A stretch of DNA of 64,000 nucleotides from Hyphomicrobiales bacterium (GTDB lineage Bacteria; Pseudomonadota; Alphaproteobacteria; Rhizobiales; Rhizobiaceae): contig UCMT01000018.1 in NCBI GenBank assembly GCA_900473795.1, positions 62,001 to 126,000 of the forward strand, written 5' to 3'. Made by a program: the position numbers and the translations under genes. Shown piece after piece: positions 7,101 to 24,637 of the stretch. The stretch's first letter is position 1, and each line of letters opens with the position of its first letter. The notes under the pieces are model-generated. The model searched no databases, was not told where the DNA came from, and saw only the letters and a list, made by a program, of their open reading frames with translations.

Positions 7101-7365
7101 GGCCGTCGGTGGTCGCCTGGCTGCTCATGTAGAGCATGTCCTGGACGCCGTTGATCGATTCCTCCAGCGGCGTCGCCACCGTTTCGGCAATCACCTTGGG
7201 GTTTGCGCCGGGATAATTGGCACGCACCACGACGGACGGCGGCACGACATCCGGATACTCCGAGATCGGCAGGATCGTCATGGCGATCAGGCCGCCGAGG
7301 AAGATGAGGAAGGACAGAACGCCCGCGAAAACCGGGCGATCGATGAAGAACCTGGAGATATTCAT
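4135..7365 (-). CDS. RND multidrug efflux inner-membrane pump (AcrB/MexB type)
   Basis: This 1076-residue resistance-nodulation-division pump would export hydrophobic or amphipathic compounds using the proton gradient. It starts with the typical MNISRFFIDRPVFAGVLS and has the two paired aspartates of TM4 (IGIVVDDAIVVVENVER). The GSAEYSLRSLLN and APGSNAIEIADQVR segments of the porter domain and the second six-helix block ending near 1030 are also seen. Length matches AcrB/MexB (about 1040-1050) with a slightly longer C-terminal tail. It follows its membrane fusion partner by 37 bases on the same strand. No outer-membrane factor gene is present, so a TolC-type channel encoded elsewhere must complete the pump. 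Confidence 0.95.
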   Translation of the reverse strand: MNISRFFIDRPVFAGVLSFLIFLGGLIAMTILPISEYPDVVPPSVVVRANYPGANPKVIAETVATPLEESINGVQDMLYMSSQATTDGLMTLTVTFKLGTDPDQAQQLVQNRVSQAEPRLPEEVRRLGVTTVKSSPDLMMVVHLTSPEGRYDMTYLRNYALINVKDRLARIDGVGQVQLFGSGDYSMRIWLDPQKMAELGLSASDVVNEIRAQNIQAAAGVIGSSPNLEGVDLQLSVNAQGRLQSEEEFGEIIIKTSPTGAITRLRDVARIELGSAEYSLRSLLNNKQAVAVPVFQAPGSNAIEIADQVRTVMKEIKATMPQDVDYEIVYDTTQFVRASIEAVIHTLLEAIALVVIVVIIFLQTWRASIIPLIAVPVSIVGTFAIMQLFGFSINALSLFGLVLAIGIVVDDAIVVVENVERNIENGLAPREATYRAMAEVSGPIIAIALVLVAVFVPLAFISGLTGQFYKQFALTIAISTVISAFNSLTLSPALAALLLRGHDAPKDRLTRIMDFLFGWFFRGFNTVFTRGANGYSAGVKGVISRKTLMMGVYLLLIGATAFFFKAVPGGFVPPQDKQYLVGFTQLPDGASLDRTEEVIRRISDIALKVPGVEDAIAFPGLSINGFTNSSNAGIVFLSLKPFEERTTPDLSAGAIAGRLNQELSVIQDSFSAIFPPPPVQGLGAIGGFKLQLEDKAGLGYEALDAAVKGFMAKAYTAPELVGMFSSYQVNVPQLYADVDRAKARQLNVPLTEIFNTLQIYLGSVYVNDFNKFGRTYSVRVQADAAYRAQAEDIGKLQVRSNSGEMIPLSAVLNVSSSAGPERAMRYNGFLSADVNGNTAPGYSSGQARAAVERIAAETLPAGVSFEWTELTYQEIIAGNTGVLIFPLSILLVFLVLAAQYESLSLPLSIIMIIPMALLAALAGVWLTAGDNNVFTQIGLIVLVGLSAKNAILIVEFARELEFEGAKPFDAVIKASRLRLRPILMTSMAFIMGVVPLVTSTGAGAEMRHAMGVAVFSGMIGVTLFGLFLTPVFYVVVRALSGNRPLKITGAHVAPAETATVTQLHTQPVLPGLEAAE

Positions 7366-7402
7366 GGCGCGATCGCCCTTGTTCGAAAGTGCCGGTAACG
7401 GC

Positions 7403-8623
7403 TTACTGTGTGATGGAGGCTTGCAGCGCAGGATTTGCCCCGGTGCTCATCGAGACCATTTCGGGTGCGACGAGCGTGCCGGGACGGATGCGCTGCAGGC
7501 CATTGACGACGATGCGCTCGTCAGCCTTGAGACCTGATGTCACCACCCGCAGGCCATCGGATTTCGCGCCGACCGTGATTTCGCGGTATTCGGTGGTGTT
7601 GTCGGGCTTGACGACGATCACGTACTTCTTGTTCTGGTCGGTGCCGATCGCCCGCTCATGAATGAGAACGGCGTCTTCCGTCTTCGCCTGGCCCATGCTC
7701 AGCCGGGCGAACTGTCCCGGCATCAGCGCGCCATTGGCGTTGTCGAAGACGGCGCGGACCCGGATGGTGCCGCTTTGCGGGTCGACGCTGTTGTCGACGA
7801 GCTGGAGCTTGCCCTTGATATCCGCGTGACCGGCGACATCCATCTGCACCGGAACGCGGTCGAGGAAATTGCGGGCATTCACGCCTTCGGGCAGTTCGGC
7901 AAGAATGCCGGAGACGATCTGTTCATCCGCCTCGAAGCTCGCATAGATCGGGCTCAGCGACACCAGCCGGGTGAGGATCGGCGAGGACGGACCGGCGGCG
8001 ATGAGGTTGCCGGCAGTAATCTCGATCTTGCCGACGCGACCGGTAATCGGCGCGCGGATTCCGGTGTAGCTCAGATTGAGCTCGGCCGATTGCAGCACGG
8101 CGCGCGCGGCTTCCAGATCGGCCTCGGCACTTGCCTCACCGTTCAGGCGCTGATCGTAGTCACTTTGCGAAACCGCGTTGGAGGCAAGCAGTTGCTTGCC
8201 GCGCTTCAGTTCGGTGCGGGCCAAGGAGGCCCGGGCCTCGGCGGCAGTCACGCTCGCTTGGGCGCGGGCCACTTCTGCCTGGTAGGGAGCCGGGTCGATG
8301 GTGACGAGCAGGCCGCCCTTCTCGACGATCGCGCCTTCCTGGAAGTGAACGGACTGGATGGCGCCAGCCACCCGGGAGCGCAACTCGACATGATCGATCG
8401 CCTCCAGACGGCCGGAGAATTCACTCCACTGCGTTACGGGCTTTGCCTCAACGACGGCGACCGAGACGGGAACGGCAACGGGTGCGGCGGCCGTGGCATC
8501 GGCTGCGTTGCCGGTGCCGGACGGGCTGCCCTGGATTTCGAAGACGATCGTCGGTGCAATGGTTGCCACGGCAAGAACGAGCCCGGTGGCGAGAAGCTTG
8601 TTTCTGAAAGTTCCGAAAGACAT
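7403..8623 (-). CDS. RND efflux membrane fusion protein (AcrA/MexA type)
   Basis: This 406-residue periplasmic adaptor links the RND pump to an outer-membrane channel. An N-terminal hydrophobic stretch (LLATGLVLAVATIAPTIVF) serves as membrane anchor or signal. The lipoyl half-motifs flank the alpha-hairpin (VELRSRVAGAIQSVHFQEGAIVEKG and later ITGRVGKIEITAGNLI in pieces), followed by beta-barrel and membrane-proximal domains. It has no lipoprotein Cys near its start. It is the first gene of the efflux operon. Its promoter region overlaps two palindromes probably bound by the divergent TetR protein, so expression should be induced by a ligand of that regulator. Confidence 0.93.
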   Translation of the reverse strand: MSFGTFRNKLLATGLVLAVATIAPTIVFEIQGSPSGTGNAADATAAAPVAVPVSVAVVEAKPVTQWSEFSGRLEAIDHVELRSRVAGAIQSVHFQEGAIVEKGGLLVTIDPAPYQAEVARAQASVTAAEARASLARTELKRGKQLLASNAVSQSDYDQRLNGEASAEADLEAARAVLQSAELNLSYTGIRAPITGRVGKIEITAGNLIAAGPSSPILTRLVSLSPIYASFEADEQIVSGILAELPEGVNARNFLDRVPVQMDVAGHADIKGKLQLVDNSVDPQSGTIRVRAVFDNANGALMPGQFARLSMGQAKTEDAVLIHERAIGTDQNKKYVIVVKPDNTTEYREITVGAKSDGLRVVTSGLKADERIVVNGLQRIRPGTLVAPEMVSMSTGANPALQASITQ

Positions 8624-8718
8624 GGCGTTATCCTGAAATCTCTCGCCCCGATGCGGGGCCGGCCGGTCATCCTTCGTGGGAGGCGAGGGATTTGGGCGAA
8701 GGTTGCATTGACGTTTAA

Positions 8719-8730
8719 TACCGGTCGGTA
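8719..8730. promoter_or_regulatory. TetR-type operator, site 1
   Basis: TACCGGTCGGTA is an inverted repeat of TACCG around GT. It lies at the expected transcription start of the efflux operon, just downstream (on the minus strand) of the -10 element. It shares the TACCGnTCGGTA pattern with site 2 at 8773, which supports one regulator binding both. Confidence 0.7.
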
Positions 8731-8732
8731 TA

Positions 8733-8762
8733 GAAATAGGGTCCTGAACCGGTCAGTGTCAA
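8733..8762 (-). promoter_or_regulatory. Predicted promoter of the RND efflux operon
   Basis: Read on the minus strand, TTGACA (8762-8757) and TATTTC (8738-8733) are separated by 18 bases. The promoter is sandwiched between the two TACCGnTCGGTA palindromes, so a bound TetR dimer at either would block it. Confidence 0.55.
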
Positions 8763-8772
8763 TGGAATTATA

Positions 8773-8784
8773 TACCGATCGGTA
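8773..8784. promoter_or_regulatory. TetR-type operator, site 2
   Basis: TACCGATCGGTA is a perfect 12-base palindrome lying 23 bases before the TetR gene start. It matches site 1 at 11 of 12 positions. A weaker copy (AACCGGTCAGTG) lies between them at 8747-8758. The arrangement suggests autoregulation as well as control of the efflux pair. Confidence 0.7.
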
Positions 8785-8807
8785 CAAAAAATCAGGAGGT
8801 CCGGCCC

Positions 8808-9407
8808 ATGGGACGGCCAAGAGAGTTCGATGTCGACGAAGCCCTTGAAACGGCCATGGAACTGTTCTGGCGAAAGGGCTACGAAGGCACCTCTCTGACC
8901 GATCTGACCGAGGGAATGGGGATCACCAAGCCGAGCCTCTACGGCGTCTTCGGCAACAAGGAGGGTCTGTTCCTGAAGGCGCTCGAGCGCTATGAGCGGA
9001 CAAAAATGGCCTTCTTTCACAAGGCCCTCGAGGAGCCCCGGGCCCGCATTGTCGCCGAAAAGATCCTGCACGGCTTTGCCGATGCGCAGACGGCGGACAA
9101 GGACCCCAGCGGATGCATGGGCATCAACGGTGCCCTGGCCTGCAGCGAGGCTGCCGCCGAAATCCAGAAGTGTCTGATCGAAAACCGCCATCGCGGTGAG
9201 CGCGAATTGGGCAGGCGCTTCGAGCGCGCCGCAGCGGAAGGTGACCTGCCGCCCGGCCACGAGCCCCATGATCTTGCCCGCTATATCATGACGATTTCGC
9301 AAGGGACGGCCATTCAGGCGGCGTCGGGCGCCGATCGGCAGGCGCTTTATCGAGTCATCGACATGGCGCTGCAATTCTGGCCCGAACTGTCCCCTCAAGA
9401 CAGTTAA
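8808..9407 (+). CDS. TetR/AcrR-family transcriptional regulator
   Basis: This 199-residue regulator has the N-terminal helix-turn-helix of the TetR family at about residues 8-55 (AMELFWRKGYEGTSLTDL, then GITKPSLYGVFGNKEGL), and a C-terminal ligand-binding bundle. A CAGGAGGT Shine-Dalgarno sequence sits 7 bases before the ATG. It is transcribed divergently from the RND efflux operon, and the shared 184-base gap carries two near-identical TACCGnTCGGTA palindromes, so it very likely represses the pump and itself. The cysteine-containing stretch PSGCMGINGALACSE is shared by the YxaF/NemR-like branch of TetR proteins. The inducing compound is unknown. Confidence 0.9.
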   Translation: MGRPREFDVDEALETAMELFWRKGYEGTSLTDLTEGMGITKPSLYGVFGNKEGLFLKALERYERTKMAFFHKALEEPRARIVAEKILHGFADAQTADKDPSGCMGINGALACSEAAAEIQKCLIENRHRGERELGRRFERAAAEGDLPPGHEPHDLARYIMTISQGTAIQAASGADRQALYRVIDMALQFWPELSPQDS

Positions 9408-9458: not shown

Positions 9459-10226
9459 TCAGTCGTCTGCCATCTTTCCGCTGCGTGATTCCAGCCGATA
9501 TCGGTTGCCGGGATAGACGAGCCGGGCAAAGGAGACGACGCGCTTGGACGACCATGTGCGCCTGCGGATGAGCAGGCAGGGCTCGGTGCGAAGGATCACT
9601 AGGAGCTTGCATTCCCAAGGTTGCGGCATGGCCGCTTCGACGATGTGTTCGGAGCCGCTCAACGGAGCCTCGGCAGTCAGATACGCGTTCGGCGTCAGCG
9701 TCGTAAAGTCTTGTTCAAGGTAGCCTGGCGCTGCTTCGGGATTGACGAAACGGTCCTCGATCTGGACCGGGACGCCGTTTTCGCTGTGCACGATCAGTGA
9801 GTGAAACACCGGTGCGCCGATCGGCAGGCCGAGCGCGTCGGCGACATCGGGTGCTGCCGTCTCCTGCGCCAAAACGATCACGGAAGCCTGATGCACATGG
9901 CCTCGCTCGTCGATCTCCTCGGCAATGTTGCGCACTTCGAAGAGCTCTGAATAGCCCTTGCGCTCGGCAACAAAGGAGCCGACGCCCTGGATGCGCACCA
10001 GTTCACCCTCGCTTGCCAGTTCGCGCAGCGCCCGGTTGGCGGTCATCTTGCTGACGCCCAGTTCGGCGACCAGTTCATTCTCCGAAGGGACTCGGTGCTT
10101 GGGCGGCCATTCACCGCTCTGGATGCGGTCGAGGATCATCTGCTTGACGCCGGCATAAAGCGGTGCGCCGTCATTGTCGCTGTTGTCCCACTTCAGCTGA
10201 GCGTTCTGGTCGTTGCTGCGTTTCAT
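9459..10226 (-). CDS. GntR-family regulator, HutC subfamily (UTRA domain), copy 1
   Basis: This 255-residue DNA-binding repressor has an N-terminal winged helix (about residues 25-90: VPSENELVAELGVSKMTANR, then GVGSFVAER) and a C-terminal UTRA ligand-binding domain that ends RRTWSSKRVVSFARLVYPGNR. That RRTW...ARLVYPG block is characteristic of HutC histidine-utilization repressors. It is divergent from the amino-acid ABC transporter, MIO-less lyase and FAD oxidase operon, and probably controls that operon. A second HutC-like gene lies at 24638-25408 beside hutF. This copy may answer to urocanate like canonical HutC, or to a different urocanate-like intermediate. Confident of family, less so of the ligand. 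Confidence 0.88.
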   Translation of the reverse strand: MKRSNDQNAQLKWDNSDNDGAPLYAGVKQMILDRIQSGEWPPKHRVPSENELVAELGVSKMTANRALRELASEGELVRIQGVGSFVAERKGYSELFEVRNIAEEIDERGHVHQASVIVLAQETAAPDVADALGLPIGAPVFHSLIVHSENGVPVQIEDRFVNPEAAPGYLEQDFTTLTPNAYLTAEAPLSGSEHIVEAAMPQPWECKLLVILRTEPCLLIRRRTWSSKRVVSFARLVYPGNRYRLESRSGKMADD

Positions 10227-10298
10227 ATGCTCATTCCTTGGGCGAAATTAAATTTGCATCCAAATGCGGCCTCCCTCTTGCATACCATAAAAATTCGC

Positions 10299-10319
10299 AT
10301 ATGGTACCATATACAACAT
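10299..10319. promoter_or_regulatory. Palindromic operator region before the amino-acid ABC operon
   Basis: ATATGGTACCATAT (10299-10312) is a perfect 14-base palindrome, and the repeated word CCATATACAACAT (10307-10319) overlaps its right half. It lies 73 bases upstream of the HutC-like gene and about 105 bases before the binding-protein gene, the expected place for the GntR regulator to act on both. Confidence 0.55.
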
Positions 10320-10423
10320 GGATGTTCAGGGGCATTTTTGAAGCCGGTTCATCCGTCAATAAATTTGTAAAGCCGGCGGAGATCGGCGGACGTTGTGAAG
10401 ATAAACCTCAGAGGAACCTGAAC

Positions 10424-11263
10424 ATGAACCTATCCAAATTTCTGATGGCCGGTGCCGTCGCATTCGCAACCCTTGCTGCTCCGATGGCTCAGGCCAAGGA
10501 CTGGAAGACGGTCACCATCACGCTCGAAGGCGCCTATGCGCCGTGGAACCTGACCAATCCCGACGGTACGCTCGGCGGTTTCGAACCGGAGCTTGCCAAA
10601 TATCTCTGCGACCACATGAAGGTCGAGTGCAATCTCGTCGCCTCCGATTGGGACGGCATGATCCCGGCGCTCAATGCCGGCAAGTTCGATGTGATCATGG
10701 ATGCGCTGTCGATCACCGAAGAGCGCAAGAAGATCATCGACTTCACCATTCCTTATGCTCATACCCACGCCGCCTTCGCGACGCTGAAGGATGGCACGCT
10801 GGCAAACGCTGCCGGCACCGGCACCGTCGTCAAGCTCGATCCGGGCGCAACCGGCGTCAAGGAAATCGATGCGATGAAGGCAGCCTTCGCCGGCAAGACG
10901 ATCGGCATCCAGGCCGCGACCGTCTACTCCAAGTTCATCTATGACAACTTCGGCGATGTCGCCACGGTGCGCGAATACAAGACCGGCGCCGAGCGCGACC
11001 TCGATCTCGAAACCGGCCGCATCGATCTCGTCTTCGACGATGCCGTCTACCTGATCTCGGCTTTCGAGAAGGCCAACGGCACGCTCGCCTTCACCGGCCC
11101 TGAAATCGGCGGCACGATCTTCGGCAGCGGCGAAGGCCTCGGCATCCGTCAGGCCGATACCGATCTGCGCGACATGTTCAACAAGGCTATCGAGGCAGCG
11201 CTTGCCGACGGCACGATCAAGACCTTGTCGATGAAGTGGTTCAAGACCGACGTTACCCCCTGA
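10424..11263 (+). CDS. Amino-acid ABC transporter substrate-binding protein (opine/basic amino acid type)
   Basis: This 279-residue periplasmic binding protein of the SBP_bac_3 family begins with a clear signal peptide, predicted to be cut after AQA (residue 24). The mature part starts with the substrate-contact strand VTITLEGAYAPWNLTNPDG and includes DWDGMIPALNAGKFDVIMDA. The C-terminal DGTIKTLSMKWFKTDVTP closely resembles the ends of octopine and nopaline binding proteins (OccT/NocT) rather than plain HisJ. A GAGGA lies 8 bases before the chosen ATG. It is first in an operon with two permeases, an ATPase, a HutH paralogue and an FAD amine oxidase, so an N-modified histidine or a related amino acid is the likely cargo (inference). 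Confidence 0.88.
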   Translation: MNLSKFLMAGAVAFATLAAPMAQAKDWKTVTITLEGAYAPWNLTNPDGTLGGFEPELAKYLCDHMKVECNLVASDWDGMIPALNAGKFDVIMDALSITEERKKIIDFTIPYAHTHAAFATLKDGTLANAAGTGTVVKLDPGATGVKEIDAMKAAFAGKTIGIQAATVYSKFIYDNFGDVATVREYKTGAERDLDLETGRIDLVFDDAVYLISAFEKANGTLAFTGPEIGGTIFGSGEGLGIRQADTDLRDMFNKAIEAALADGTIKTLSMKWFKTDVTP

Positions 11264-11272
11264 TCTCAAGTT

Positions 11273-11305
11273 TGCCCGCCGCTTGCTATTCGCCCGCGGC
11301 GGGCA
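11273..11305 (+). other. GC-rich hairpin between binding-protein and permease genes
   Basis: TGCCCGCCGC (11273-11282) pairs with GCGGCGGGCA (11296-11305) across a 13-base loop. No T run follows, so it is more likely an mRNA 3'-end stabiliser that keeps the binding-protein message in excess over the permeases than a full terminator. Confidence 0.6.
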
Positions 11306-11404
11306 CACTTTGCTGCGGCAGGCCGCCCACTTCAGGTGCGGCCTTCCATATCCATCTGACGATCGGGAAGCCGGCCTTGCCGGAAACGACGGGACGCCTG
11401 CGGC

Positions 11405-12127
11405 ATGGCACTATTTCAATTGATCGGATTTGGCCCCACCGGCTGGGGCGGGCTGCTTCTCCTGGCAGCGTTGATGACGCTTTGCGTCACCGCCGTTGCG
11501 CTGTTGATCGGCGCTATCCTCGGCTCGCTCGTCGCCTGGGCGAAGCTGTCGGGCAGCAGGATACTGCGCACGCTTGGCGGCACATACACCACCGTCTTTC
11601 GCGGCGTTCCCGAACTGCTGATCATCTATCTCGTCTATTTCGGCGGATCGAGCGCGGTCACCGCGATCGGCACAGCGATGGGCTATGAGGGCTTTCTCGG
11701 CCTTCCATCGTTCGCAGCCGGTGCGCTTGCGGTCGGCATCATCTCCGGCGCCTACCAGGCCGAGGTTTTTCGCGGTGCTTTTCTCGCCATCCCGAAGGGT
11801 GAGCTTGAGGCGGCGCAAGCGATCGGCATGAACCGCAGCTTGCGCTTCCGCCGCATCATCGGCCCACAGGTTTTCCGGTTTGCCATTCCGGGCATCGGAA
11901 ATGTCTGGCAGCTCAGCCTGAAGGACTCGGCGCTCGTGTCCGTAACCGGGCTTGCCGACCTGATGCGGACCAGCCAGGTCGCGGCCGGTTCGACGCGGCA
12001 GCACTTCCTGTTCTTCATCGTCGGCGGCTGTCTCTACCTGATCCTCACCAGCTTCTCGGACCGCTTCTTCACCAGCGCCGAAAAGCGCGCCAATCGCAGC
12101 ATGCCGACCAGCCTCGGCCAAGCCTGA
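11405..12127 (+). CDS. Amino-acid ABC transporter permease (HisQ/OccQ type)
   Basis: This 240-residue inner-membrane permease is of the polar amino-acid family. Several hydrophobic segments are visible, and the cytoplasmic ATPase-contact loop reads ELEAAQAIGMNRSLRFRRIIGPQ, matching the EAA motif (EAA---G---------I-LP). FRGVPELLIIYLVYFGG is the typical second-helix signature of HisQ-like proteins. It forms a heterodimeric channel with the permease that follows 18 bases after its stop. The substrate is set by the upstream binding protein. Confidence 0.92.
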   Translation: MALFQLIGFGPTGWGGLLLLAALMTLCVTAVALLIGAILGSLVAWAKLSGSRILRTLGGTYTTVFRGVPELLIIYLVYFGGSSAVTAIGTAMGYEGFLGLPSFAAGALAVGIISGAYQAEVFRGAFLAIPKGELEAAQAIGMNRSLRFRRIIGPQVFRFAIPGIGNVWQLSLKDSALVSVTGLADLMRTSQVAAGSTRQHFLFFIVGGCLYLILTSFSDRFFTSAEKRANRSMPTSLGQA

Positions 12128-12145
12128 TCCCCAAGGAGCCGCGCG

Positions 12146-12856
12146 ATGGATATCACCTTCATGCTCGAGACTATGAAAACGCTGCTGGCGGCTCTGCCGA
12201 TGACGCTGGCGCTGTTTTCCCTCTCGGTTTTCTTCGGCGGATTGCTGGCCCTCGTCATCGTCTGGATGCGGGTGAGCGGCAATACCATCGCCCGCAATTT
12301 CGCCAAGGGCTATATCTTCGTCTTCCGCGGTTCGCCGCTGTTGATCCAGATGTTCCTGATTTTCTATGGCCTCGGGCAGTTCGGCTTCATCCGCTACAGC
12401 TTCCTCTGGCCGGCGCTGCGCGAACCCTTCGTCTGCGCCGTGCTGTCGCTGGCCCTTTGCACGGCGGGCTATACGGCTGAAATCTTTCGCTTCGGCCTGC
12501 GCGCCATCCCGGCCAAGGAGATCGAGGCGGCCCGGTCGGTCGGCATGTCCGGCTTCCTGCTGACCCGCCGCATCCTGGCGCCGATCGCCTTCCGGCATGC
12601 GCTGCCGGCCTATTCGACCGAGGTGGTGATGATGGTGAAGTCAACGGCGCTCGCCAGCCTCGTCACGGTCTGGGAGGTCACGGGCGTTGCCCAGCGGCTG
12701 ATCTCGCAGACCTACCGCACGATGGAAGTCTTCCTCTGCGCTGCCGCCATCTATCTCATCCTGAACTTCCTGATCCTGCAGGCCATGGCGCTGCTCGAAT
12801 ACAAGCTGACCCCGCACCGCCGCGCGGCTCCCCTGTTTCCGGTGCCGCAGCGATGA
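12146..12856 (+). CDS. Amino-acid ABC transporter permease (HisM/OccM type)
   Basis: This 236-residue second permease subunit has the HisM-type signature [20 protein letters not shown] and the EAA loop [20 protein letters not shown]. The aromatic, small-residue pattern after the signature is shared with the opine permease OccM. An AAGGAG sequence lies 9 bases before the ATG. Its stop codon overlaps the start of the ATPase gene (ATGA). It completes the membrane channel with the preceding gene. Confidence 0.92.
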
Positions 12857-13659
12857 CCCCGACGCCCCTCAACCAGACTGGAACGACCATGGCAGGCACG
12901 ACCCGGCTTTCCGTCCGCAACATCCGCAAGAGCTTCGGCACGCATGAGGTGCTGCGCGGCATCTCGCTCGATGCCCGCGATGGCGACGTTATTTCGCTTC
13001 TCGGCGCCAGCGGCTCGGGCAAGTCCACCTTCCTGCGCTGCATCAACCTGCTGGAAATTGCCGATCACGGCGAGATTTCCGTCGATGGCGAACTGATCCA
13101 GATGGAGCAGCGCGGCGGCAAGAACGTTCCGGCCAACCGGCGCCAGGTGGATCGCATCCGCTCTGAGCTCGGCATGGTGTTCCAGTCGTTCAATCTCTGG
13201 TCCCACATGACGATCCTCGAAAACGTCATCGAGGGGCCGGTGCACGTGCTGAAGCGTCCGCGCGCCGAATGCATCGCGGAAGCCGAAGTTCTTCTGGAAA
13301 AGGTCGGCATTGCCGAGAAGCGCAATGCCTATCCGGCGCATCTGTCGGGCGGCCAGCAGCAGCGCGCCGCGATCGCCCGCTCGCTGGCAATGAAGCCGAA
13401 GGTCATGCTGTTCGACGAGCCGACCTCGGCGCTCGATCCGGAACTGGTCGGCGAGGTGCTGCGCGTCATGCGCTCGCTTGCCGAGGAAGGCATGACCATG
13501 CTGGTCGTCACCCATGAAATGAGCTTTGCCCGCAACGTCTCCAACCGGGTGATCTTCATGAAATCCGGCGAGATCGACAGCGACGGTGCGCCGGAGGAAT
13601 TGTTCGGCTCCGGCGGCTCCCCGAGCTTCCGCCAGTTCATCGGCAATTTTGGAGGCTGA
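12853..13659 (+). CDS. Amino-acid ABC transporter ATP-binding protein (HisP/OccP type)
   Basis: This 268-residue ATPase belongs to the importer encoded upstream. Walker A (GASGSGKST), the HisP-type Q-loop [18 protein letters not shown], signature LSGGQQQR and Walker [14 protein letters not shown] are all present. The start at 12853 overlaps the permease stop (ATGA); an ATG at 12889 ([12 protein letters not shown]) would match the usual family N-terminus, so translation may begin there. It is followed after only two bases by the HutH paralogue, which strongly links transport with that enzyme. Confidence 0.92.
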
Positions 13660-13661
13660 TC

Positions 13662-15158
13662 GTGCAGGATATCGTGCTCGAAACGGCGCTCGACTGGCGC
13701 GCCGTGGCGGCGGTTGCCGATGGCGCGGCCCTTTCGCTGTCCGATAGTGCGCGCCAGCGGGTTGAGACGGCCAGCCGCATCGTTGCGGCAATCGTCGAAA
13801 GCGGCGTGCGTGCCTATGGCGTCAATACCGGCGTCGGCGCACTCGCCGATACCGTCGTCGATCGCCCGTCCCAGAGCCGCTTGTCGCGCAACATCATCCT
13901 CAGCCACGCCTGCGGTGTCGGTCCGCTGCTGGACGCTTGCGCGGTGCGTGCCATCGTCGCGGCGCAGATAGCCAATTTTTCGCATGGCCATTCCGGCGTG
14001 CGCCCAGTGATCGTCGAGACGTTGCAGGCTTTCCTGCGCGAAGACTGCATTCCCGATGTGCCCGCGAAAGGTTCTGCCGGCTATCTCTCCCACAACGCTC
14101 ACATCGCGCTGGTACTGATCGGTGAGGGTAGGGCGCGGTTGAAGGGGAGACCGACAAGCGGCGCCGAGGCCCTGAAAACACTCGGCATCGAGCCGCTGGT
14201 GCTGCAGGCCAAGGAAGGTCTGAGCCTCGTCAACGGCACGGCCTGTTCGACGGGCCTCGGCTCGTTGGCTCTGGCGCGCGCCGAGCGCTTTCTTGAATGG
14301 GCCGATGCCATCGCCGCGCTGACCATCGAGGCGCTCGGAGGTCAGGCGGCGGCGTTCGATGCGCCGGTGCTGGCGCTTCGCAAGTCGAAGGGCATCGAGA
14401 AAGTCGGTAGGATGCTGCGCGGGCGCCTCGCTGGCAGCGGCCTGATCGAGGCCGCCAAGGGCGCGCGCACGCAGGATGCCCTGAGCCTTCGCTCCGTCCC
14501 GCATGCGCACGGCGCCGGTTGGGATGTCTTCGATTTTGTCGGTTCGATCGTCGATCAGGAACTTGCGTCCGTAACCGACAATCCCGCCGTATCCGGCACG
14601 CCGGATGCCCCCGTCGTTTCTTCCGAAGCACACGCCGTCGCACCCGGCCTCGGGCAGGCGCTGGATAGCCTTGCGGTCGCCATCGCCCAGATCTCGGCGA
14701 TGAGCGAGCGGCGGATCGACCGGCTGGTCAATCCGCTCGTCAGCGGCCTACCGGCCTTCCTGGCGACCGATCCTGGTGCCGGGTCCGGCTTCATGATCGG
14801 GCAATATACGGCGGCGGCCCTTGCTGCTGAAAACCGGCGGCTCGGTGCGCCGGCGAGCCTCGACGGAGGCGTCACCTCGGCGTTGCAGGAGGATTTTCTC
14901 GCGCATCCGACGGCTGCGGCCAACAAGCTGCTCGCCGTCATAGACAATGCCGAGCAGATACTCGGCATCGAATTCGCTGCTGCCGCGCAGGCCCAGGATT
15001 TCAAGGTTGGGGTCGCGCCTCGAGCCAAGGGAACAGACGCGCTCTATCGTCATATCCGCGCCGTTCTTCCAACCTATGCCGACGACCGGCCACTTGGCTG
15101 GGATCTGGAAAAGGCGCGCGATCTCCTGCGCGCATCGTCACCGCCTGCCAGCGTTTAA
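13662..15158 (+). CDS. HutH-like aromatic amino-acid lyase paralogue lacking the MIO triad
   Basis: This 498-residue member of the histidine/phenylalanine ammonia-lyase fold starts with GTG after GGAGG. Against the canonical HutH at 20170-21705 it keeps Tyr52, His82, the VNGT asparagine, the TQD glutamine, the arginine of LSLR, and the glutamate of QED. HutH reads [14 protein letters not shown] at the cofactor site; this protein reads GSAGYLSHNAH, an exact three-residue gap where Ala-Ser-Gly cyclises into methylidene-imidazolone. The Tyr280 position of HutH is Leu here. It therefore cannot work by the MIO mechanism. Related MIO-free enzymes such as ergothionase eliminate a better leaving group (trimethylamine). 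Candidate substrates are hercynine, ergothioneine or another N-modified histidine; this is inference from motif and context. Confidence 0.85.
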   Translation: MQDIVLETALDWRAVAAVADGAALSLSDSARQRVETASRIVAAIVESGVRAYGVNTGVGALADTVVDRPSQSRLSRNIILSHACGVGPLLDACAVRAIVAAQIANFSHGHSGVRPVIVETLQAFLREDCIPDVPAKGSAGYLSHNAHIALVLIGEGRARLKGRPTSGAEALKTLGIEPLVLQAKEGLSLVNGTACSTGLGSLALARAERFLEWADAIAALTIEALGGQAAAFDAPVLALRKSKGIEKVGRMLRGRLAGSGLIEAAKGARTQDALSLRSVPHAHGAGWDVFDFVGSIVDQELASVTDNPAVSGTPDAPVVSSEAHAVAPGLGQALDSLAVAIAQISAMSERRIDRLVNPLVSGLPAFLATDPGAGSGFMIGQYTAAALAAENRRLGAPASLDGGVTSALQEDFLAHPTAAANKLLAVIDNAEQILGIEFAAAAQAQDFKVGVAPRAKGTDALYRHIRAVLPTYADDRPLGWDLEKARDLLRASSPPASV

Positions 15159-15178
15159 CACTCCAGAAAGGTACGTCC

Positions 15179-16336
15179 ATGACCGCCCATTTCGACGTTG
15201 CCATTGTCGGTCTCGGCGCCGTGGGAAGTGCCGCAATCTCGCATCTTTCGGCACGCGGGGTGAAGACTATCGGCATTGATGCATACTACCCGGCGCATGC
15301 GCTGAGTTCCTCGCACGGCGATAGCCGCCTGATCCGGCTCGGCTATTTCGAGGATCCGTCTTATGTGCCACTCCTGCAGCGCGCCTATGCCAATTGGCGG
15401 GTGCTGGAGACGCGGCTGCGCGAGGATATTCTGACGATCACCGGCGTGCTGCAGATCGGCAAGCCCGACAGCAAGATCGTCAGCGGCACAAGGAAATCCT
15501 GCAATCTTCACGATCTGCCGGTGGACACGCTTGATCCGGACGAGATGCGCCGCCGCTTTCCCGTCTTCGCGCTGGACGAGGACGAGATCGCTTTGCTTGA
15601 TCCGCAGGGCGGCTATCTGAAGCCAGAGGCGGCGGTGATGGGCTATCTCAAACTCGCCGCCAGCGATGGCGCCGCCTTGCATTTCGGCGAAAAGGTCACG
15701 GCAATCGAACCGGGGGACAACGGCGTGACTGTCGTCTCCGACACGGGACGCTACAGTGCCGGCAAGGTCATCGTCGCGACCGGCTCGTGGATCGGCGAAC
15801 TGGTGCCGGCGCTGCGCGATCATGCGGTGCCGATCAAGCAGGTCGTCTCATGGTATCAGCCGGTCGATGGTTTCGTCACCACGCCGCAGCGCATGCCGGT
15901 GTTCATTCGGGATGAAGGCGAAAACGGTTCCTTCTTCGGCTTTCCGTCGATCGGCATCGATGGCGTCAAGGTCGGCCGCCATGCGCATTTTCGCGAGCCG
16001 ATCGATCCCAATCAGCCCAACCCGCCGGTCAACGAGAGAGATACGCACCTTCTCGACAGTTTCATCAGGCGCCGGCTTCCGGCCGCCGCGGGCGTGCGGG
16101 TTCGCTCGACAACCTGCCGCTATACCATGTTGCCGAGCGAGGATTTCCTGCTCGATCTTCTGCCCGGCGACAAACGCATTGTCGTCGCATCCCCCTGTTC
16201 CGGCCACGGCTTCAAGTTCACCAGCGTCATCGGCGAAATCCTTGCCGATTTGGCTCTGGATGGTGACACGGACCTGCCGATCGGTGCCTTTTCCTTCGAG
16301 GCGATGGAACGGTTTCTGGGTGCTAGGCCGGCGTAG
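15179..16336 (+). CDS. FAD-dependent N-methyl amino-acid oxidase (MSOX/SolA type)
   Basis: This 385-residue flavoprotein resembles monomeric sarcosine oxidase and N-methyltryptophan oxidase, which oxidise secondary amines to imines and release an aldehyde plus hydrogen peroxide. The N-terminus FDVAIVGLGAVGSAA is the dinucleotide-binding fold. SSSHGDSRLIRLGYFEDPSYVPL matches the flavin-contacting loop of that group in outline. Cys313, in TTCRYTMLPSEDF, aligns with the Cys that binds FAD covalently in monomeric sarcosine oxidase. AGAAAGG-like ribosome binding precedes the ATG, 20 bases after the lyase gene. It is the last gene of the operon and probably removes an N-methyl or N-alkyl group from the imported compound or a product of it. 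Confidence 0.85.
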   Translation: MTAHFDVAIVGLGAVGSAAISHLSARGVKTIGIDAYYPAHALSSSHGDSRLIRLGYFEDPSYVPLLQRAYANWRVLETRLREDILTITGVLQIGKPDSKIVSGTRKSCNLHDLPVDTLDPDEMRRRFPVFALDEDEIALLDPQGGYLKPEAAVMGYLKLAASDGAALHFGEKVTAIEPGDNGVTVVSDTGRYSAGKVIVATGSWIGELVPALRDHAVPIKQVVSWYQPVDGFVTTPQRMPVFIRDEGENGSFFGFPSIGIDGVKVGRHAHFREPIDPNQPNPPVNERDTHLLDSFIRRRLPAAAGVRVRSTTCRYTMLPSEDFLLDLLPGDKRIVVASPCSGHGFKFTSVIGEILADLALDGDTDLPIGAFSFEAMERFLGARPA

Positions 16337-16372
16337 GGAGACCACTGGGGCTAGCGCCAGGGCTGTGGTGCC

Positions 16373-16972
16373 TCAGACGGGCGAAATGTGGATCAGATAG
16401 GCCTCCGTCGGCATGTCGGAGGTGATCAGCACGACGCCTTCCAGGATGGCACAATCCAGCCTGGCAAGCTCAACTGCGTGATCTCCGGAATCGATCCGTA
16501 CATTGCCGAGCGACAGAAGCATGGTGACGCCGCCCTCCGCATCCAGATGGTGCTGCCCTTCGACAATCCGCTTTTCAACCTGATGCACCCATTGCCCGCG
16601 CCGGGTCATGACGTTCAGATCGACGATCGCGCCCGATACCAGCCGTGCCGAGGTCACCGCATCGGCCGGAAAGGCAAGCGGTTTGGATGCCTGCGTCAGC
16701 ACCGCCGGCGCTCGGCCTGCTATATCCAGTTCCATGCCCTCTCCCTGGAGGATCGACAGGGTTCGGTCGATGCCGGGAAAAACAGAGAAAGGCCCGTCAC
16801 TGCCGACAGTCGCCATGCTGACGCGCCAGCCGAAAGTGGCGAGATCGGCCTCCGGCGGGAATACGGCGATCTCCACGGTCTCGCCTGCACCGTTTTTCCA
16901 CGGCATGCGGCGGTAAGTGTCCGCCTTTAAAACCAGCGGACGGTTGTGATTGGGCTGTTGCGCGATGGACAT
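16373..16972 (-). CDS. hutD: HutD-family protein
   Basis: This 199-residue cupin-like HutD protein occurs with histidine-utilization genes. In Pseudomonas it is reported to limit over-induction of hut, perhaps by binding urocanate or formylglutamate. The family start YRRMPWKNGAGETVEIAVFP is unmistakable. It is convergent with the FAD oxidase operon and stands apart from the hutUGHI operon, from which it is separated by a toxin-antitoxin pair. Its upstream region (16973-17029) is shared with that pair. Confidence 0.88.
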   Translation of the reverse strand: MSIAQQPNHNRPLVLKADTYRRMPWKNGAGETVEIAVFPPEADLATFGWRVSMATVGSDGPFSVFPGIDRTLSILQGEGMELDIAGRAPAVLTQASKPLAFPADAVTSARLVSGAIVDLNVMTRRGQWVHQVEKRIVEGQHHLDAEGGVTMLLSLGNVRIDSGDHAVELARLDCAILEGVVLITSDMPTEAYLIHISPV

Positions 16973-17680: not shown

Positions 17681-19354
17681 TCAGTTCCCGAGAATTCCCG
17701 GCAGCCGCAGACCCTTTTCCTTGGCGCAGTCGAGGGCGATCTCGTAGCCGGCGTCGGCGTGGCGCATGACGCCGGTCGCCGGGTCGTTCCAGAGAACGCG
17801 TTCGATGCGACGCGCAGCATCGTCGGTGCCGTCGGCGCAGATGACCACGCCTGAATGCTGCGAGAAGCCCATGCCGACGCCGCCGCCGTGATGCAGCGAT
17901 ACCCAGGTGGCGCCGGACGCGGTGTTGAGGAGCGCGTTGAGCAGCGGCCAGTCGGATACGGCGTCGGAGCCATCCTTCATGGCCTCAGTTTCGCGGTTCG
18001 GCGAGGCGACGGAGCCGCTATCCAGATGGTCGCGGCCGATGACGACCGGCGCACTCAGTTCGCCGTTCTTGACCATTTCGTTGAAGGCGAGGCCGAGGCG
18101 ATGACGGTCGCCGAGACCGACCCAGCAGATGCGCGCCGGCAGGCCCTGGAAGGCGATGCGCTCGGCGGCCATGTCGAGCCAGTTGTGCAGGTGCTTGTTG
18201 TCGGGCAGCAGTTCCTTGACCTTGGCATCGGTCTTGCGGATATCCTCCGGATCGCCCGACAGGGCCGCCCAGCGGAACGGACCGATGCCGCGGCAGAACA
18301 GCGGGCGGATATAGGCCGGGACGAAGCCCGGGAAGGCGAAGGCGTTTTCAAGGCCCTCTTCCTTGGCAACCTGGCGGATGTTGTTGCCGTAGTCGAAGGT
18401 CGGGATGCCCATGTCCTGAAAGGCGATCATCGCCTCGACATGTTCGCGCATCGAGGCGCGGGCAGCCTTTTCGACGGCCTTGGGGTCGCTTTCGCGCTTT
18501 GCCTTCCACTCAGCCATGGTCCAGCCCTTCGGCAGGTAACCGTTGATCGGGTCGTGGGCCGAGGTCTGGTCGGTGACCATGTCCGGGCGGATGCCGCGGC
18601 GGACCATTTCCGGCAGGATTTCGGCGCAGTTGCCGAGCAGGCCGACGGACTTGGCTTCACCGGCGGCGGTCCAGCGCTCGATCATCTCCATCGCTTCATC
18701 GAGGGTCTCGGCGCGGGCGTCGACGTAGCGGGTGCGCAGGCGAAAATCGATCGAGTCCGGATTGCACTCGACGGCGAGGCACGAAGCGCCAGCCATGACT
18801 GCGGCGAGCGGCTGGGCGCCACCCATGCCGCCGAGACCGCCGGTCAGGACCCACTTGCCCTTCAGGTCGCCGTTGTAATGTTGGCGGCCGGCCTCGACGA
18901 AAGTCTCGTAGGTGCCCTGCACGATGCCCTGCGAACCGATGTAGATCCACGAACCGGCGGTCATCTGGCCGTACATGGCGAGACCCTTCTTATCCAGCTC
19001 GTTGAAATGGTCCCAGGTCGCCCAATGCGGCACGAGGTTGGAGTTGGCGATCAGCACACGCGGCGCATCCTTGTGGGTGCGGAAGACCCCGACCGGCTTG
19101 CCGGATTGCACCATCAGCGTCTCGTCTTCATTGAGGTCGCGCAGCGTGTCGACGATTTTGTCGAAGTCGGCCCAGGTGCGGGCGGCGCGGCCAATGCCGC
19201 CGTAGACAACGAGTTCGTGCGGGTTCTCGGCCACTTCCGGATCGAGATTGTTCATCAGCATGCGAAGCGGCGCTTCCGTCATCCAGGATTTTGCGGTCAG
19301 TTCAGTACCGCGGGCTGCGCGGACGTCGCGGATGTTGTGACGAGGATTGGTCAT
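17681..19354 (-). CDS. hutU: Urocanate hydratase
   Basis: This 557-residue urocanate hydratase (urocanase) adds water to urocanate to form 4-imidazolone-5-propionate, with NAD+ as a bound electrophile. Length equals that of the Pseudomonas enzyme. QLGGLGG-type NAD-binding sequence ([16 protein letters not shown]) and the reactive Cys segment [20 protein letters not shown] are intact. It is the last gene of the minus-strand hutI-hutH-hutG-hutU operon; its ATG overlaps the hutG stop. A MIO-less lyase that yields urocanate or thiourocanate from a modified histidine could also feed this step. Confidence 0.97.
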
Positions 19355-20169
19355 TTGGTTCCCCTTTTGGTGTGTGCCAGTGTCAGCGCTGTCGTTTCGA
19401 TGCGCGCGAGAATGTCTTTGAGGTGAATGCGAAGCTTTGCCGCCTTGGCTTCGTCATAGGCGAAGGGCGGTGTCTCGGTGGCCAGATGGGTGGATTGTGC
19501 CAGTTCCATCTGGATCGCGTGGACGCCGGTTTCCGGCCGGCCATAGTGGCGCGTCGTCCAGCCACCCTTGAAGCGGCCGTTGAGGATGCTGGTGTAGCCC
19601 TGCGCATTCAGGACGACGTCGACAGTTGCATCCTGAATGGCTGGATCGCAGGTCTTGCCGCTATCCGTGCCGATGTTGAAATCGGGCAGCGTGCCTTCGA
19701 ACAGGAACGGAATATCCGACCGGATCGAATGGCAGTCGTAAAGGACGGCAATTCCGTGGATCGCCTTCACCCGTTCGATCTCGGCGGTGAGCGCCGCATG
19801 ATAGGGCGCATGGAAATCGGTCAGCCGGGCGGCAAGGTCGGCTTCCGTCGGCTGCTCGCCGTCCTTCCAGATGGAAAGGCCGTCGAAATCGGTTTCCGGA
19901 ACGAGACCGGTCGTGTTCTGGCCGGGATAGAGGCTGACACCTTCCGGATCGCGATTGGCGTCGATGACATAGCGATGAAAGGTGGCGCGCACCGTCGTCA
20001 CCTCCGGCAGCAAGCCGTCGTAGAGGCGATGGATGTGCCAGTCGGTGTCGGCGAGGATCCGGCCATTATCGTTCAGCCGCTCCCAGATCGCCGGCGGAAC
20101 GTCGGTGCCGGTGTGGGGGAAACCGAGAATGACGGGCGATGTGCCCTGTTTGACTTCAAAGACGCTCAT
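19351..20169 (-). CDS. hutG: N-formylglutamate deformylase
   Basis: This 272-residue zinc-dependent amidohydrolase cleaves N-formylglutamate to formate and glutamate, the last step of the HutF branch of histidine breakdown. The N-terminal [13 protein letters not shown], the metal-binding [16 protein letters not shown], and [13 protein letters not shown] match the FGase family. The start codon follows the hutH stop directly, and its own stop overlaps hutU. It pairs logically with hutF at 23106, which makes formylglutamate. Confidence 0.95.
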
Positions 20170-21705
20170 TCACGCCTCCAGAACCGGCAGGATACCGGCG
20201 GAAACCGCGGCGTTCAGGGTGCCGGAGCCGATGAGGTCGCTGGCCGCCTTGAGGTCGGTCGCCATGTAGCGGTCGATCTCCAGCGTCGGGACAACGGAGC
20301 GGATCGCGGCGATGGCCTTGGTCAGTTCCGGGCTGGTGACGAGCGGCGCGCGGAAGTCGATGCCTTGCGCGGCCGTCAGCGCCTCGATGCCGATGATCGA
20401 AAACAGGTTTTCGGTCATCTGCAGCAAGCGGCGGGCGCCGTGGCAGGCCATGGAGACGTGATCTTCCTGGTTGGCCGAGGTCGGGGTGGAATCGACCGAG
20501 GCCGGGTGCGACATCTGCTTGTTTTCCGACATCAGCGCAGCCGAGGTCACTTCGGCGATCATCAGGCCGGAGTTGAGGCCGGGCTTCTTGGCGAGGAATG
20601 CTGGAAGGCCGTAGGAGAGTGCCGGATCGACCAAAAGCGCGATTCGGCGCTGCGAGATAGCGCCGATTTCGCAAATGGCGAGCGCGATCTGGTCGGCGGC
20701 GAAGGCGACCGGCTCGGCGTGGAAATTACCGCCGGAGACGACGGAATTGTCGGACAGCACCAGCGGATTGTCGGTGACGGCATTGGCTTCGATTTCGAGC
20801 GTGCGGGCAACGGAGCGCATGAGATCGAGGCAGGCGCCGTCGACCTGTGGCTGGCAGCGGATGCAGTAGGGATCCTGAACCCGCTCGTCACCCTCGATAT
20901 GGCTTTCGCGGATCACCGAGCCCTTGAGCAGACCGCGCAGGGCGGCGGCTGCATCGATCTGGCCCTTGTGGCCGCGCAGCGTATGGATATCCGGATGGAA
21001 CGGTGCCGAGGAGCCCATGGCGGCATCGGTCGAAAGCGCGCCGGTGATCAGCGCGGACTGCGCGGCACGGTGGGCGCGGAACAGGCCGGCGAGCGCGAGC
21101 GCAGTCGAGACCTGCGTGCCGTTGATCAGCGCCAGACCTTCCTTGGCTGCCAGCACGACCGGCGTCAGGCCGGCGCGCTCGAGCGCCGTGCGGCCGTCAA
21201 GCTGCTCGCCATTGAAGAACGCTTCGCCTTCGCCCATCATCACCGCTGCCATATGAGCGAGCGGCGCGAGGTCGCCGGAGGCGCCGACGGAGCCTTTTTC
21301 CGGAATGACCGGGATGACGCCCTTGTCCATCATCGCCTCGATCAGGCGGACGAGTTCGAGCCGGACGCCGGATGCGCCGCGTCCGAGCGAGACGAGCTTC
21401 AGCGCCATGATCAGGCGGACGATGTTCTCGGCAAGCGGCTGGCCGACGCCGCAGCAGTGGGAGAGGATCAGGTTGCGCTGCAGGGTGGCGACATCGGCGG
21501 CATCGATCTTGATGCTCGCCAGTTTTCCGAAGCCTGTGTTGATGCCGTAAACCGGCGCGTTGCCTGCGGCGATCTCGGCGATGCGGCCGGCGGCCTTCTC
21601 GATGCCTCTGTCGAAGGCGGGATCAAGCCGGGCGGGCTCGCCGGTCCAGTAGATGGTTTCGAGGGTCGAAAGCGGGACGGAGCCCGGCTGAAGAATAAGA
21701 GTCAT
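20170..21705 (-). CDS. hutH: Histidine ammonia-lyase (canonical, MIO-containing)
   Basis: This 511-residue cytosolic enzyme converts L-histidine to urocanate and ammonia. The MIO-forming triad is Ala142-Ser143-Gly144 in [15 protein letters not shown], with Tyr53, His83, the INGT asparagine, the QDPYCIR block (Gln277, Tyr280, Arg283) and QEDHVS (Glu414) all present. The start at 21705 gives the family length and the usual MTLILQPG; the longer open frame upstream overlaps the end of hutI and was rejected. It lies between hutI and hutG and is the reference used for judging the MIO-less paralogue at 13662. Confidence 0.97.
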
Positions 21706-21754
21706 CAAGAAGTCCTCACCAATACGCGGAGCCAGGCTCACACGTCTTAAAATT

Positions 21755-23005: not shown

Positions 23006-23033
23006 CGTTTTCTAGCCTTTCCTTTTCGTGCTA

Positions 23034-23049
23034 TTATGTATAGACATAA
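23034..23049. promoter_or_regulatory. HutC-type operator between hutI and hutF
   Basis: TTATGT and ACATAA form a perfect inverted repeat around ATAG. The centre TGTATAGACA differs by one base from TGTATATACA, the core of HutC operators as known in other Proteobacteria. It lies in the divergent hutI/hutF promoter region and would let one repressor control both directions. Confidence 0.6.
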
Positions 23050-23105
23050 AGAAAATGAGCGCAAGTGGTTTTTTGATTTTATCGAAAACGGGAGAGGGTT
23101 CGGCC

Positions 23106-24446: not shown

Positions 24447-24500
24447 TGGATTTGGTTCGGCGTCGCGTCTTTTCAGGGCAAGCGGCGCTGAAGAATTTCT

Positions 24501-24607
24501 GCTAGAGCAAATCCAGGAAAAGTGCGAAGCGGTTTTCCGTCCGGATTTGCGTCAAAACAAGGAGATAGAGCATTTCCGTGACTCAAGAAAAACGGAAATG
24601 CTCTAGA
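24501..24607. repeat. Rhizobial intergenic mosaic repeat (two hairpins)
   Basis: The element has two palindromic halves. In the first, GCAAATCC (24507-24514) pairs with GGATTTGC (24543-24550), and nested GGAAAA pairs with TTTTCC. In the second, TAGAGCATTTCCGT (24566-24579) pairs perfectly with ACGGAAATGCTCTA (24592-24605). Sequences of this form recur between genes in Rhizobium and Agrobacterium (RIME-like elements, from memory). It lies between hutF and the second HutC gene and may end hutF transcripts. Confidence 0.75.
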
Positions 24608-24637
24608 CCATTCGGGTTTGATGAAAGTGAGTGCGTT

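What the first reader, a model, noticed from the sequence alone, without database searches (positions are those of the whole stretch)
9459..16972. Candidate undescribed operon for import and breakdown of an N-modified histidine
Seen: HutC-type repressor, divergent from an operon with an OccT/NocT-like binding protein, two permeases, an ATPase, the MIO-less lyase two bases later and an MSOX/SolA-type FAD oxidase 20 bases after it, then HutD, next to the complete hut genes. Known: MSOX-type enzymes oxidise N-methyl or N-alkyl amino acids; OccT/NocT bind N-carboxyalkyl amino acids. Inference: the locus takes up an alkylated or betaine-like histidine, removes its amine group by lyase or oxidase and passes urocanate (or a near relative) to HutU.
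Basis: partly seen in the sequence, partly recalled or inferred. Interest (0 to 1): 0.78.

Follow-up and report, generated by a model that had tools for sequence, protein, structure and literature searches.

The report
Hercynine (histidine betaine) breakdown operon
Next to the ordinary histidine-degradation genes sits an operon whose "histidine lyase" has lost the chemical group needed to act on histidine, and which most likely imports and splits hercynine, a trimethylated histidine made by fungi and other microbes.

Summary
The genes are as described. The lyase (13662-15158) is a HutH paralogue without the Ala-Ser-Gly triplet that makes the MIO group. Among 127 collected relatives, 0 have it and 127 have Tyr280 changed to Leu, as in ergothionase, a known MIO-free trimethylamine lyase; imidazole and carboxylate residues stay. 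They form one clade beside HutH. Of 126 relatives' loci, 119 lie near hut genes or a HutC-type gene; uptake systems nearby are the window's ABC type (93), HutXWV (17), another OpuAC-type ABC (4) or BCCT (2); 10 have none. The last three are betaine-type; 0 of 26 control hut loci had one, though 2 had amino-acid-type ABCs. The genome also holds a separate ergothioneine pathway with its own ergothionase relative, and a trimethylamine cluster. Best reading: imported hercynine is split into urocanate and trimethylamine, and urocanate enters HutU. The flavin oxidase is an accessory (57 of the 80 closest loci; 0 of 24 wider ones). The binding protein keeps the acid that opine binders lost, so the opine idea is unlikely. 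The clade includes the position of Pseudomonas "HutH1", reported as not needed for growth on histidine. Substrate and activity are untested.

The parts
9459..10226 (-). HutC-type GntR repressor, divergent from the operon
   Evidence: TIGR02018 300 bits over cut-off 220; lies opposite the SBP gene in many relatives (83 divergent pairs incl. the window)
10300..10311 (.). palindrome TATGGTACCATA, candidate HutC operator
   Evidence: only match in the window at up to 2 mismatches, 0.25 expected; its 10-base core is in 35 of 83 HutC/SBP intergenic regions
10424..11263 (+). periplasmic binding protein, polar amino acid family (OccJ/NocT/HisJ kin)
11405..12127 (+). ABC permease (HisQ-like)
12146..12856 (+). 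ABC permease (ArtM/HisM-like)
12853..13659 (+). ABC ATPase (HisP-like)
13662..15158 (+). MIO-less HutH paralogue (LyaseX), proposed hercynine trimethylamine-lyase
15179..16336 (+). MSOX/SolA-type FAD oxidase, accessory
   Evidence: NF008425 416 bits over cut-off 257; H45 R49 R52 K265 H269 C315 Y317 K348 kept in 57 of 57 distinct rows
16373..16972 (-). HutD/Ves-like protein, convergent
   Evidence: NF008488 E 1e-22 but below cut-off; HutD label by position and recall
17681..19354 (-). hutU, urocanate hydratase, proposed next enzyme
   Evidence: TIGR01228 973 bits over cut-off 375; thiourocanate hydratase model 694 bits, below its cut-off 930
20170..21705 (-). canonical hutH with ASG triplet
   Evidence: TIGR01225 734 bits over cut-off 539; ASG

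Best explanation
The operon imports hercynine (N-alpha,N-alpha,N-alpha-trimethylhistidine, histidine betaine) through a polar-amino-acid ABC transporter. LyaseX removes trimethylamine without a MIO group by beta-elimination and gives urocanate, which enters the neighbouring hut pathway at HutU; the HutC-type repressor would sense urocanate. Trimethylamine is oxidised by the genome's trimethylamine pathway. The FAD oxidase, present in many Rhizobiales copies only, probably demethylates partly methylated (mono-, dimethyl-) histidine that the lyase cannot use. Shown: gene content, loss of ASG, residue conservation, clade, linkage, the other two pathways in the genome. Inferred: substrate, reaction, inducer, role of the oxidase.
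For: (1) ASG absent in 127 of 127 LyaseX rows (123 distinct); present in 73 of 74 HutH-like rows, the exception being an ergothionase relative. (2) Tyr280 to Leu in 127 of 127, as in ergothionase 6s7j and in the genome's own ergothionase relative; Arg283, Glu414, Gln277, Asn195 kept in 127 of 127, His83 and Tyr53 in 126. (3) HAL fold, TM 0.92 to HAL and 0.89 to ergothionase. (4) Of 126 fetched loci (122 distinct), 93 have the window's ABC type, 17 HutXWV, 4 another OpuAC-type ABC, 2 BCCT, 10 none of these. None of 26 control hut loci without LyaseX has an OpuAC, HutX or BCCT match; ABCs seen there are NMT1-type (3) and SBP_bac_3-type (2). Phylum draw alone: 10 of 18 betaine-type against 0 of 26 (kinship not corrected; 7 of the 10 from one family). 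(5) HutX keeps two ProX aromatic-box Trp (140, 188) in 19 of 19. (6) As far as the capped lists show, LyaseX genomes also have hutH: 10 of 10 against 41 of 190. (7) The window's HutU is the ordinary one, while contig C24 of the same genome holds thiourocanate hydratase, thiohydantoin desulfurase, ErtD and ErtE beside an ergothionase relative, and a TMAO demethylase/FMO/DmmA-like cluster.
Against: No activity or binding data. The window's own transporter belongs to an amino-acid family, not a betaine family; 93 of 126 loci share that type, and 2 of 26 controls have an ABC of the same broad family. HutXWV is in print as a histidine transporter (PMC8871633, PMC5343134). Ten loci have none of the four transporters, and seven have no hut or HutC match within 7.5 kb (L073, L086, L087, L153, L167, L202, L203). 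LyaseX is closer in sequence to HutH than to ergothionase (301 against 178 bits), and Phe329 is Ala or Pro where ergothionase keeps Phe. The oxidase has no necessary role in this scheme.
Confidence: 0.68

Rival explanations
1. LyaseX is a second ergothionase: it splits ergothioneine (or its sulfonate or S-methyl form) into trimethylamine and a thiourocanate.
For: Both lack MIO and have Leu at 280; PMC13405746 lists Agrobacterium radiobacter among organisms with ergothionase (passage).
Against: The genome already has an ergothionase relative (best solved match 6s7j) beside thiourocanate hydratase, desulfurase, ErtD and ErtE, each over an NCBIfam cut-off. The window's HutU is over the hutU cut-off and under both thiourocanate hydratase cut-offs; HutU of the other loci was matched by BLAST to the window's only. 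Quick midpoint-rooted tree: LyaseX groups with HutH, ergothionase outside.
Confidence: 0.1
2. The substrate is an N-carboxyalkyl histidine (histopine type) or another secondary amine; the lyase or oxidase frees the amine.
For: Binding protein nearest to octopine- and nopaline-binding proteins; MSOX-type oxidase downstream in many Rhizobiales; Trp52 and Tyr14 are shared with the opine binders.
Against: Asp161 and Asp69 in 14 of 14 binding proteins of this type, neither in OccJ or NocT; oxidase not found in 16 of 73 same-transporter loci (two end too soon to tell); other lyase loci use betaine-type transporters.
Confidence: 0.08
3. LyaseX is a dead or regulatory HutH paralogue, or a weak histidine lyase without MIO.
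For: Loss of the catalytic group; [quoted passage not shown]
Against: Purifying selection (dN/dS 0.07-0.15 against four relatives); Asn195, Gln277, Arg283, Glu414 fixed in 127 of 127 rows from several proteobacterial families; repeated operon with a transporter.
Confidence: 0.07
4. The lyase acts on another aromatic or imidazole betaine, for example a ring-methylated hercynine, rather than hercynine itself.
For: Only the class of substrate (imidazole, carboxylate, good leaving group) can be read from the residues.
Against: hut neighbourhood and HutC-type repressor point to urocanate itself as product.
Confidence: 0.07

Closest known systems
Histidine ammonia-lyase HutH
   Same: Fold, length, imidazole- and carboxylate-binding residues, hut neighbourhood
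   Different: No Ala-Ser-Gly triplet so no MIO; Tyr280 to Leu, Phe329 to Ala/Pro; separate clade; below the NCBIfam hutH cut-off (465 against 539 bits)
Ergothionase (ergothioneine trimethylamine-lyase, PDB 6s7j)
   Same: MIO-free member of the HAL superfamily; Leu at 280; Tyr53, His83, Arg283, Glu414 kept
   Different: Outside the HutH plus LyaseX group in the quick tree; different replacement at the MIO site; the ergothionase relative of this genome sits with thiourocanate hydratase, LyaseX with ordinary HutU
Pseudomonas hutXWV-hutH1 module (described for P. fluorescens SBW25 in PMC8871633)
   Different: In print HutH1 is called a histidase; the window uses another transporter and adds an oxidase. 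The SBW25 protein itself was not fetched
OccJ/NocT opine-binding proteins
   Same: Closest solved relatives of the binding protein
   Different: Window protein keeps Asp161 and has Asp69
Monomeric sarcosine oxidase / N-methyltryptophan oxidase SolA
   Same: Over the SolA model cut-off, covalent-FAD Cys and catalytic Lys kept
   Different: Tyr254 is Phe; substrate unknown

Membership tests
Histidine ammonia-lyase (HutH) | Ala-Ser-Gly triplet that forms MIO | tested here: not met
   0 of 127 LyaseX, 73 of 74 HutH-like rows
Histidine ammonia-lyase (HutH) | Tyr280 | tested here: not met
   Leu in 127 of 127
Histidine ammonia-lyase (HutH) | imidazole/carboxylate residues His83, Glu414, Arg283 (roles recalled) | tested here: met
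   126, 127 and 127 of 127
Histidine ammonia-lyase (HutH) | NCBIfam TIGR01225 cut-off 539 bits | tested here: not met
   465 bits for the window protein; but 545 bits for the L159 relative, which also lacks ASG
Ergothionase | HAL fold without MIO, Leu280 | tested here: met
Ergothionase | belongs to the clade or is nearest to the solved ergothionase | tested here: not met
   301 bits to HAL against 178 to ergothionase; profile 408 against 261; outside in the quick tree
Ergothionase | turnover of ergothioneine | not testable with these tools
   needs enzyme assay
OccJ/NocT opine-binding proteins | loss of the acid at HisJ position 161 | tested here: not met
   Asp in 14 of 14; OccJ Asn, NocT Ser
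MSOX/SolA oxidases | His45, Arg49, Arg52, Lys265, His269, Cys315, Tyr317, Lys348 (roles recalled) | tested here: met
   57 of 57
MSOX/SolA oxidases | oxidation of an N-methyl amino acid | not testable with these tools
   needs enzyme assay

The most novel reading that the evidence does not exclude
A widespread, misnamed clade of 'HutH' enzymes lost the MIO group independently of ergothionase and became hercynine trimethylamine-lyases, paired again and again with new transporters (polar amino acid, HutXWV, another OpuAC-type ABC, BCCT). Free hercynine is then a common soil and plant-surface nutrient, and Pseudomonas HutXWV-HutH1 is its uptake system and entry enzyme.
Probability: 0.62. Interest if true: 0.85.

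Novelty: new variant of a known kind. Interest (0 to 1): 0.76.

Why it matters
It would give a pathway for hercynine breakdown, which I did not find in print (searches named under Tried and rejected), and correct the naming of a widespread clade (515 stretches of one genome collection encode a relative of the query, of which the best 80 were examined). It would explain two loose ends: why Pseudomonas HutH1 is dispensable on histidine (PMC8871633) and why HutC regulons of several orders often hold several HutH paralogues (PMC5343134). It would also show a probable second loss of the MIO group in the HAL family with the same Tyr280 to Leu change, a natural test of what MIO is for: needed to expel ammonia, not to expel trimethylamine.

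Tried and rejected
Ergothionase reading of LyaseX: rejected because a separate ergothioneine cluster is in the genome and the window's HutU is the ordinary one. Opine reading: weakened by the pocket residues. HutC operator shared with other hut promoters: in the LyaseX loci 34 of 36 palindrome sites lie near the HutC1 gene and 2 elsewhere; none was found in the 14 HutXWV-type loci listed, nor at a second place in the window, so shared regulation is not shown. Group g125 (L167, L202, L203): no hut genes nearby; neighbours look (by eye, recalled) like a PhyH-type dioxygenase, MacB-like genes and an FGGY kinase, and in two of the three a LysR; unexplained. VIA-align was not available; Foldseek was used. 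The tree is a quick one, midpoint-rooted, with long branches at ergothionase and P0004, so 'independent loss' is likely, not proven.

Limits of counts: the 126 loci are 22, the best 80 of 515 (biased to the window's own type), 18 of the 19 phylum-draw genomes not already held (G431 not fetched), and 6 from the class draw; four are duplicates. Dropped: four HutH pieces. Control loci: 26 of the 41 genomes with HutH (E <= 1e-180) and no LyaseX (E <= 1e-140). Transporter classes were called by BLAST to a few references within 7.5 kb. The controls do have transporters of their own: three NMT1-type ABCs (L174, L175, L196) and two SBP_bac_3-type ABCs (L180, L183), the latter of the window's broad family but under my similarity limit. 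The 84 of 119 genomes were not checked for ASG one by one. g215 is unnamed; I call it Pseudomonas-like from gene order and HutH identity only. Handles of most of the no-match genomes are not listed, so the 10 of 10 for hutH is as far as the lists show.

Papers: PMC13405746, PMC8871633, PMC5343134, PMC5596199, PMC9732360, PMC9103826, PMC3826126 seen as passages found by term; Boncompagni 2000 only as a title in the reference list of PMC5596199. Not held. That hercynine breakdown is not in print rests in an open-licence library only; the terms hercynase, hercynine lyase and hercynine degradation had no occurrence in the 25 papers listed of the 42 found.
Full report
What is there. The window is contig C58:62001-126000 of a 6.39 Mb genome; the closest named relatives of the lyase are in Rhizobium giardinii, Pararhizobium and other Rhizobiaceae. 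Between 9459 and 16972 lie a HutC-type repressor gene (-), then on the + strand a binding protein, two permeases, an ATPase, a HutH-like lyase and an FAD oxidase, and a convergent hutD-like gene. hutU, hutG, hutH, hutI, hutF and a second hutC follow at 17681-25408, each over its NCBIfam cut-off.

The lyase. Its best solved relatives are histidine ammonia-lyases (301 bits to 7tqr; ergothionase 6s7j 178 bits) and its predicted model (pLDDT 87.9, pTM 0.90) matches HAL with TM 0.92 and ergothionase with 0.89. But three residues are missing where HutH carries Ala-Ser-Gly, the source of the MIO group. In 127 collected rows of this kind (123 distinct) ASG is never present, Tyr280 (P. putida numbering) is always Leu, Phe329 is Ala (112) or Pro (15), a Tyr follows the GS(A/V)G in 127, and Asn195, Gln277, Arg283 and Glu414 are kept in 127; His83 and Tyr53 in 126. 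In 74 HutH-like rows ASG and Tyr280 are each present in 73; one such row, from L168, is an ergothionase relative (268 bits to 6s7j). Ergothionase and the genome's own ergothionase relative also have Leu at 280. The roles of these residues in HAL are recalled. A quick, midpoint-rooted tree puts all 51 sampled LyaseX rows in one clade (SH-aLRT 99) next to HutH, with ergothionase outside. The gene is under purifying selection (dN/dS 0.07-0.15 in four comparisons).

Why a betaine. A HAL without MIO is not expected to expel ammonia (established view of HAL chemistry, recalled), while ergothionase, which expels trimethylamine, lacks MIO (PMC13405746, passage). So the residues ask for an imidazole, a carboxylate and a good leaving group. 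The neighbourhood gives independent support. In 126 fetched loci (122 distinct) the lyase is near the window's ABC type in 93, HutXWV in 17, another OpuAC-type ABC in 4, and a BCCT carrier in 2; 10 have none of these, and 7 have no hut or HutC match within 7.5 kb. OpuAC and BCCT identities were confirmed by Pfam in the examples tested. HutX keeps Trp140 and Trp188 of the ProX aromatic box in 19 of 19 (roles recalled). In 26 control hut loci from genomes without the lyase no OpuAC, HutX or BCCT match was found; ABC systems seen there are NMT1-type in 3 and of the window's broad SBP_bac_3 family in 2, so the window's own transporter type is not by itself telling. In the phylum draw alone the betaine types are near 10 of 18 against 0 of 26, although 7 of the 10 come from one family.

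Why hercynine and not ergothioneine. Contig C24 of the same genome holds an ergothionase relative (P0004, best match 6s7j) next to thiourocanate hydratase (1044 bits, cut-off 930), thiohydantoin desulfurase (595, 440), hydantoin-5-propionate amidohydrolase ErtD (795, 600) and N-carbamyl-glutamate amidohydrolase ErtE (606, 520). The HutU beside the hut-linked lyase is the ordinary enzyme: 973 bits to hutU (cut-off 375), 694 to thiourocanate hydratase (cut-off 930). As far as the lists show, genomes with the lyase also have hutH: 10 of 10 in the shared draw against 41 of 190 others. Contig C24 further carries a TMAO demethylase (1260 bits, cut-off 1100), an FMO-like monooxygenase, a DmmA-like and a HODM-like protein, so the second product, trimethylamine, can probably be used.

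The binding protein. It is closest to OccJ and NocT, but the acid that in HisJ is Asp161 is kept in 14 of 14 proteins of this kind and lost in both opine binders; position 69 is Asp (HisJ Ser, opine binders Ala) and position 122 is Tyr; Trp52 and Tyr14 are shared with the opine binders. This fits a compact cationic amino acid better than an opine; that it binds the trimethylated form is inference.

The oxidase. It scores over the SolA cut-off and keeps the covalent-FAD Cys and catalytic Lys in 57 of 57 distinct rows. It accompanies the lyase in 57 of the 80 closest loci (2 of the other 23 end too soon to tell), in 6 of the 22 family loci and in 0 of the 24 loci from the phylum and class draws. 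A role in demethylating mono- and dimethylhistidine is a guess that would let the operon use the whole methylation series.

Link to Pseudomonas. A review says that P. [quoted passage not shown] This order, with a MIO-less lyase in the hutH1 place, is in L159, L160 and L165 (the carrier was confirmed as an NCS1-type permease in L159), whose HutH is 86-88% identical to P. putida HAL. In that unnamed genus 84 of 119 genomes have a match at E <= 1e-140. The L159 protein passes NCBI's hutH cut-off (545 against 539 bits), so misnaming is built in. A regulon study notes multiple HutH paralogues in HutC regulons of several orders (PMC5343134, passage).

Verdict. The most likely function is uptake of hercynine and its MIO-free cleavage to urocanate and trimethylamine (confidence 0.68). 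Substrate and reaction remain untested. Hercynine occurs in fungi, mycobacteria and cyanobacteria (PMC9103826, PMC3826126, passages), so supply is plausible.

Noticed in passing
L171 3003-10472 (genome contig C24, not in the window): Ergothioneine catabolic cluster: ergothionase relative, thiourocanate hydratase, thiohydantoin desulfurase, ErtD, ErtE.
   Followed up: yes
L206 7503-15322 (contig C24): Trimethylamine-use cluster: FMO-like gene, TMAO demethylase, DmmA-like and HODM-like proteins, GcvT-like protein.
   Followed up: partly
   Followed up: partly
L167, L202, L203: LyaseX without hut genes, beside genes that look like a PhyH-type dioxygenase, MacB-like export genes and an FGGY kinase (labels by eye); may have another substrate.
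   Followed up: no
G935 and G997: Pseudomonas-like genomes with two LyaseX matches each, one scoring much higher (E about 1e-211) than the genus's usual copy; may be horizontal transfer.
   Followed up: no
L044 and L040: Lyase gene in two pieces (L044) or with one internal TGA in the match (L040); left as found.
   Followed up: no
window 24578-25408: Second HutC-type regulator (TIGR02018 300 bits) beyond hutF; two HutC paralogues may split control of the two operons.
   Followed up: no
window 4135-9407: Genes that read like an RND efflux pump with a divergent TetR regulator (labels by eye) directly upstream of the finding; the TetR gene is kept in the closest relatives.
   Followed up: no
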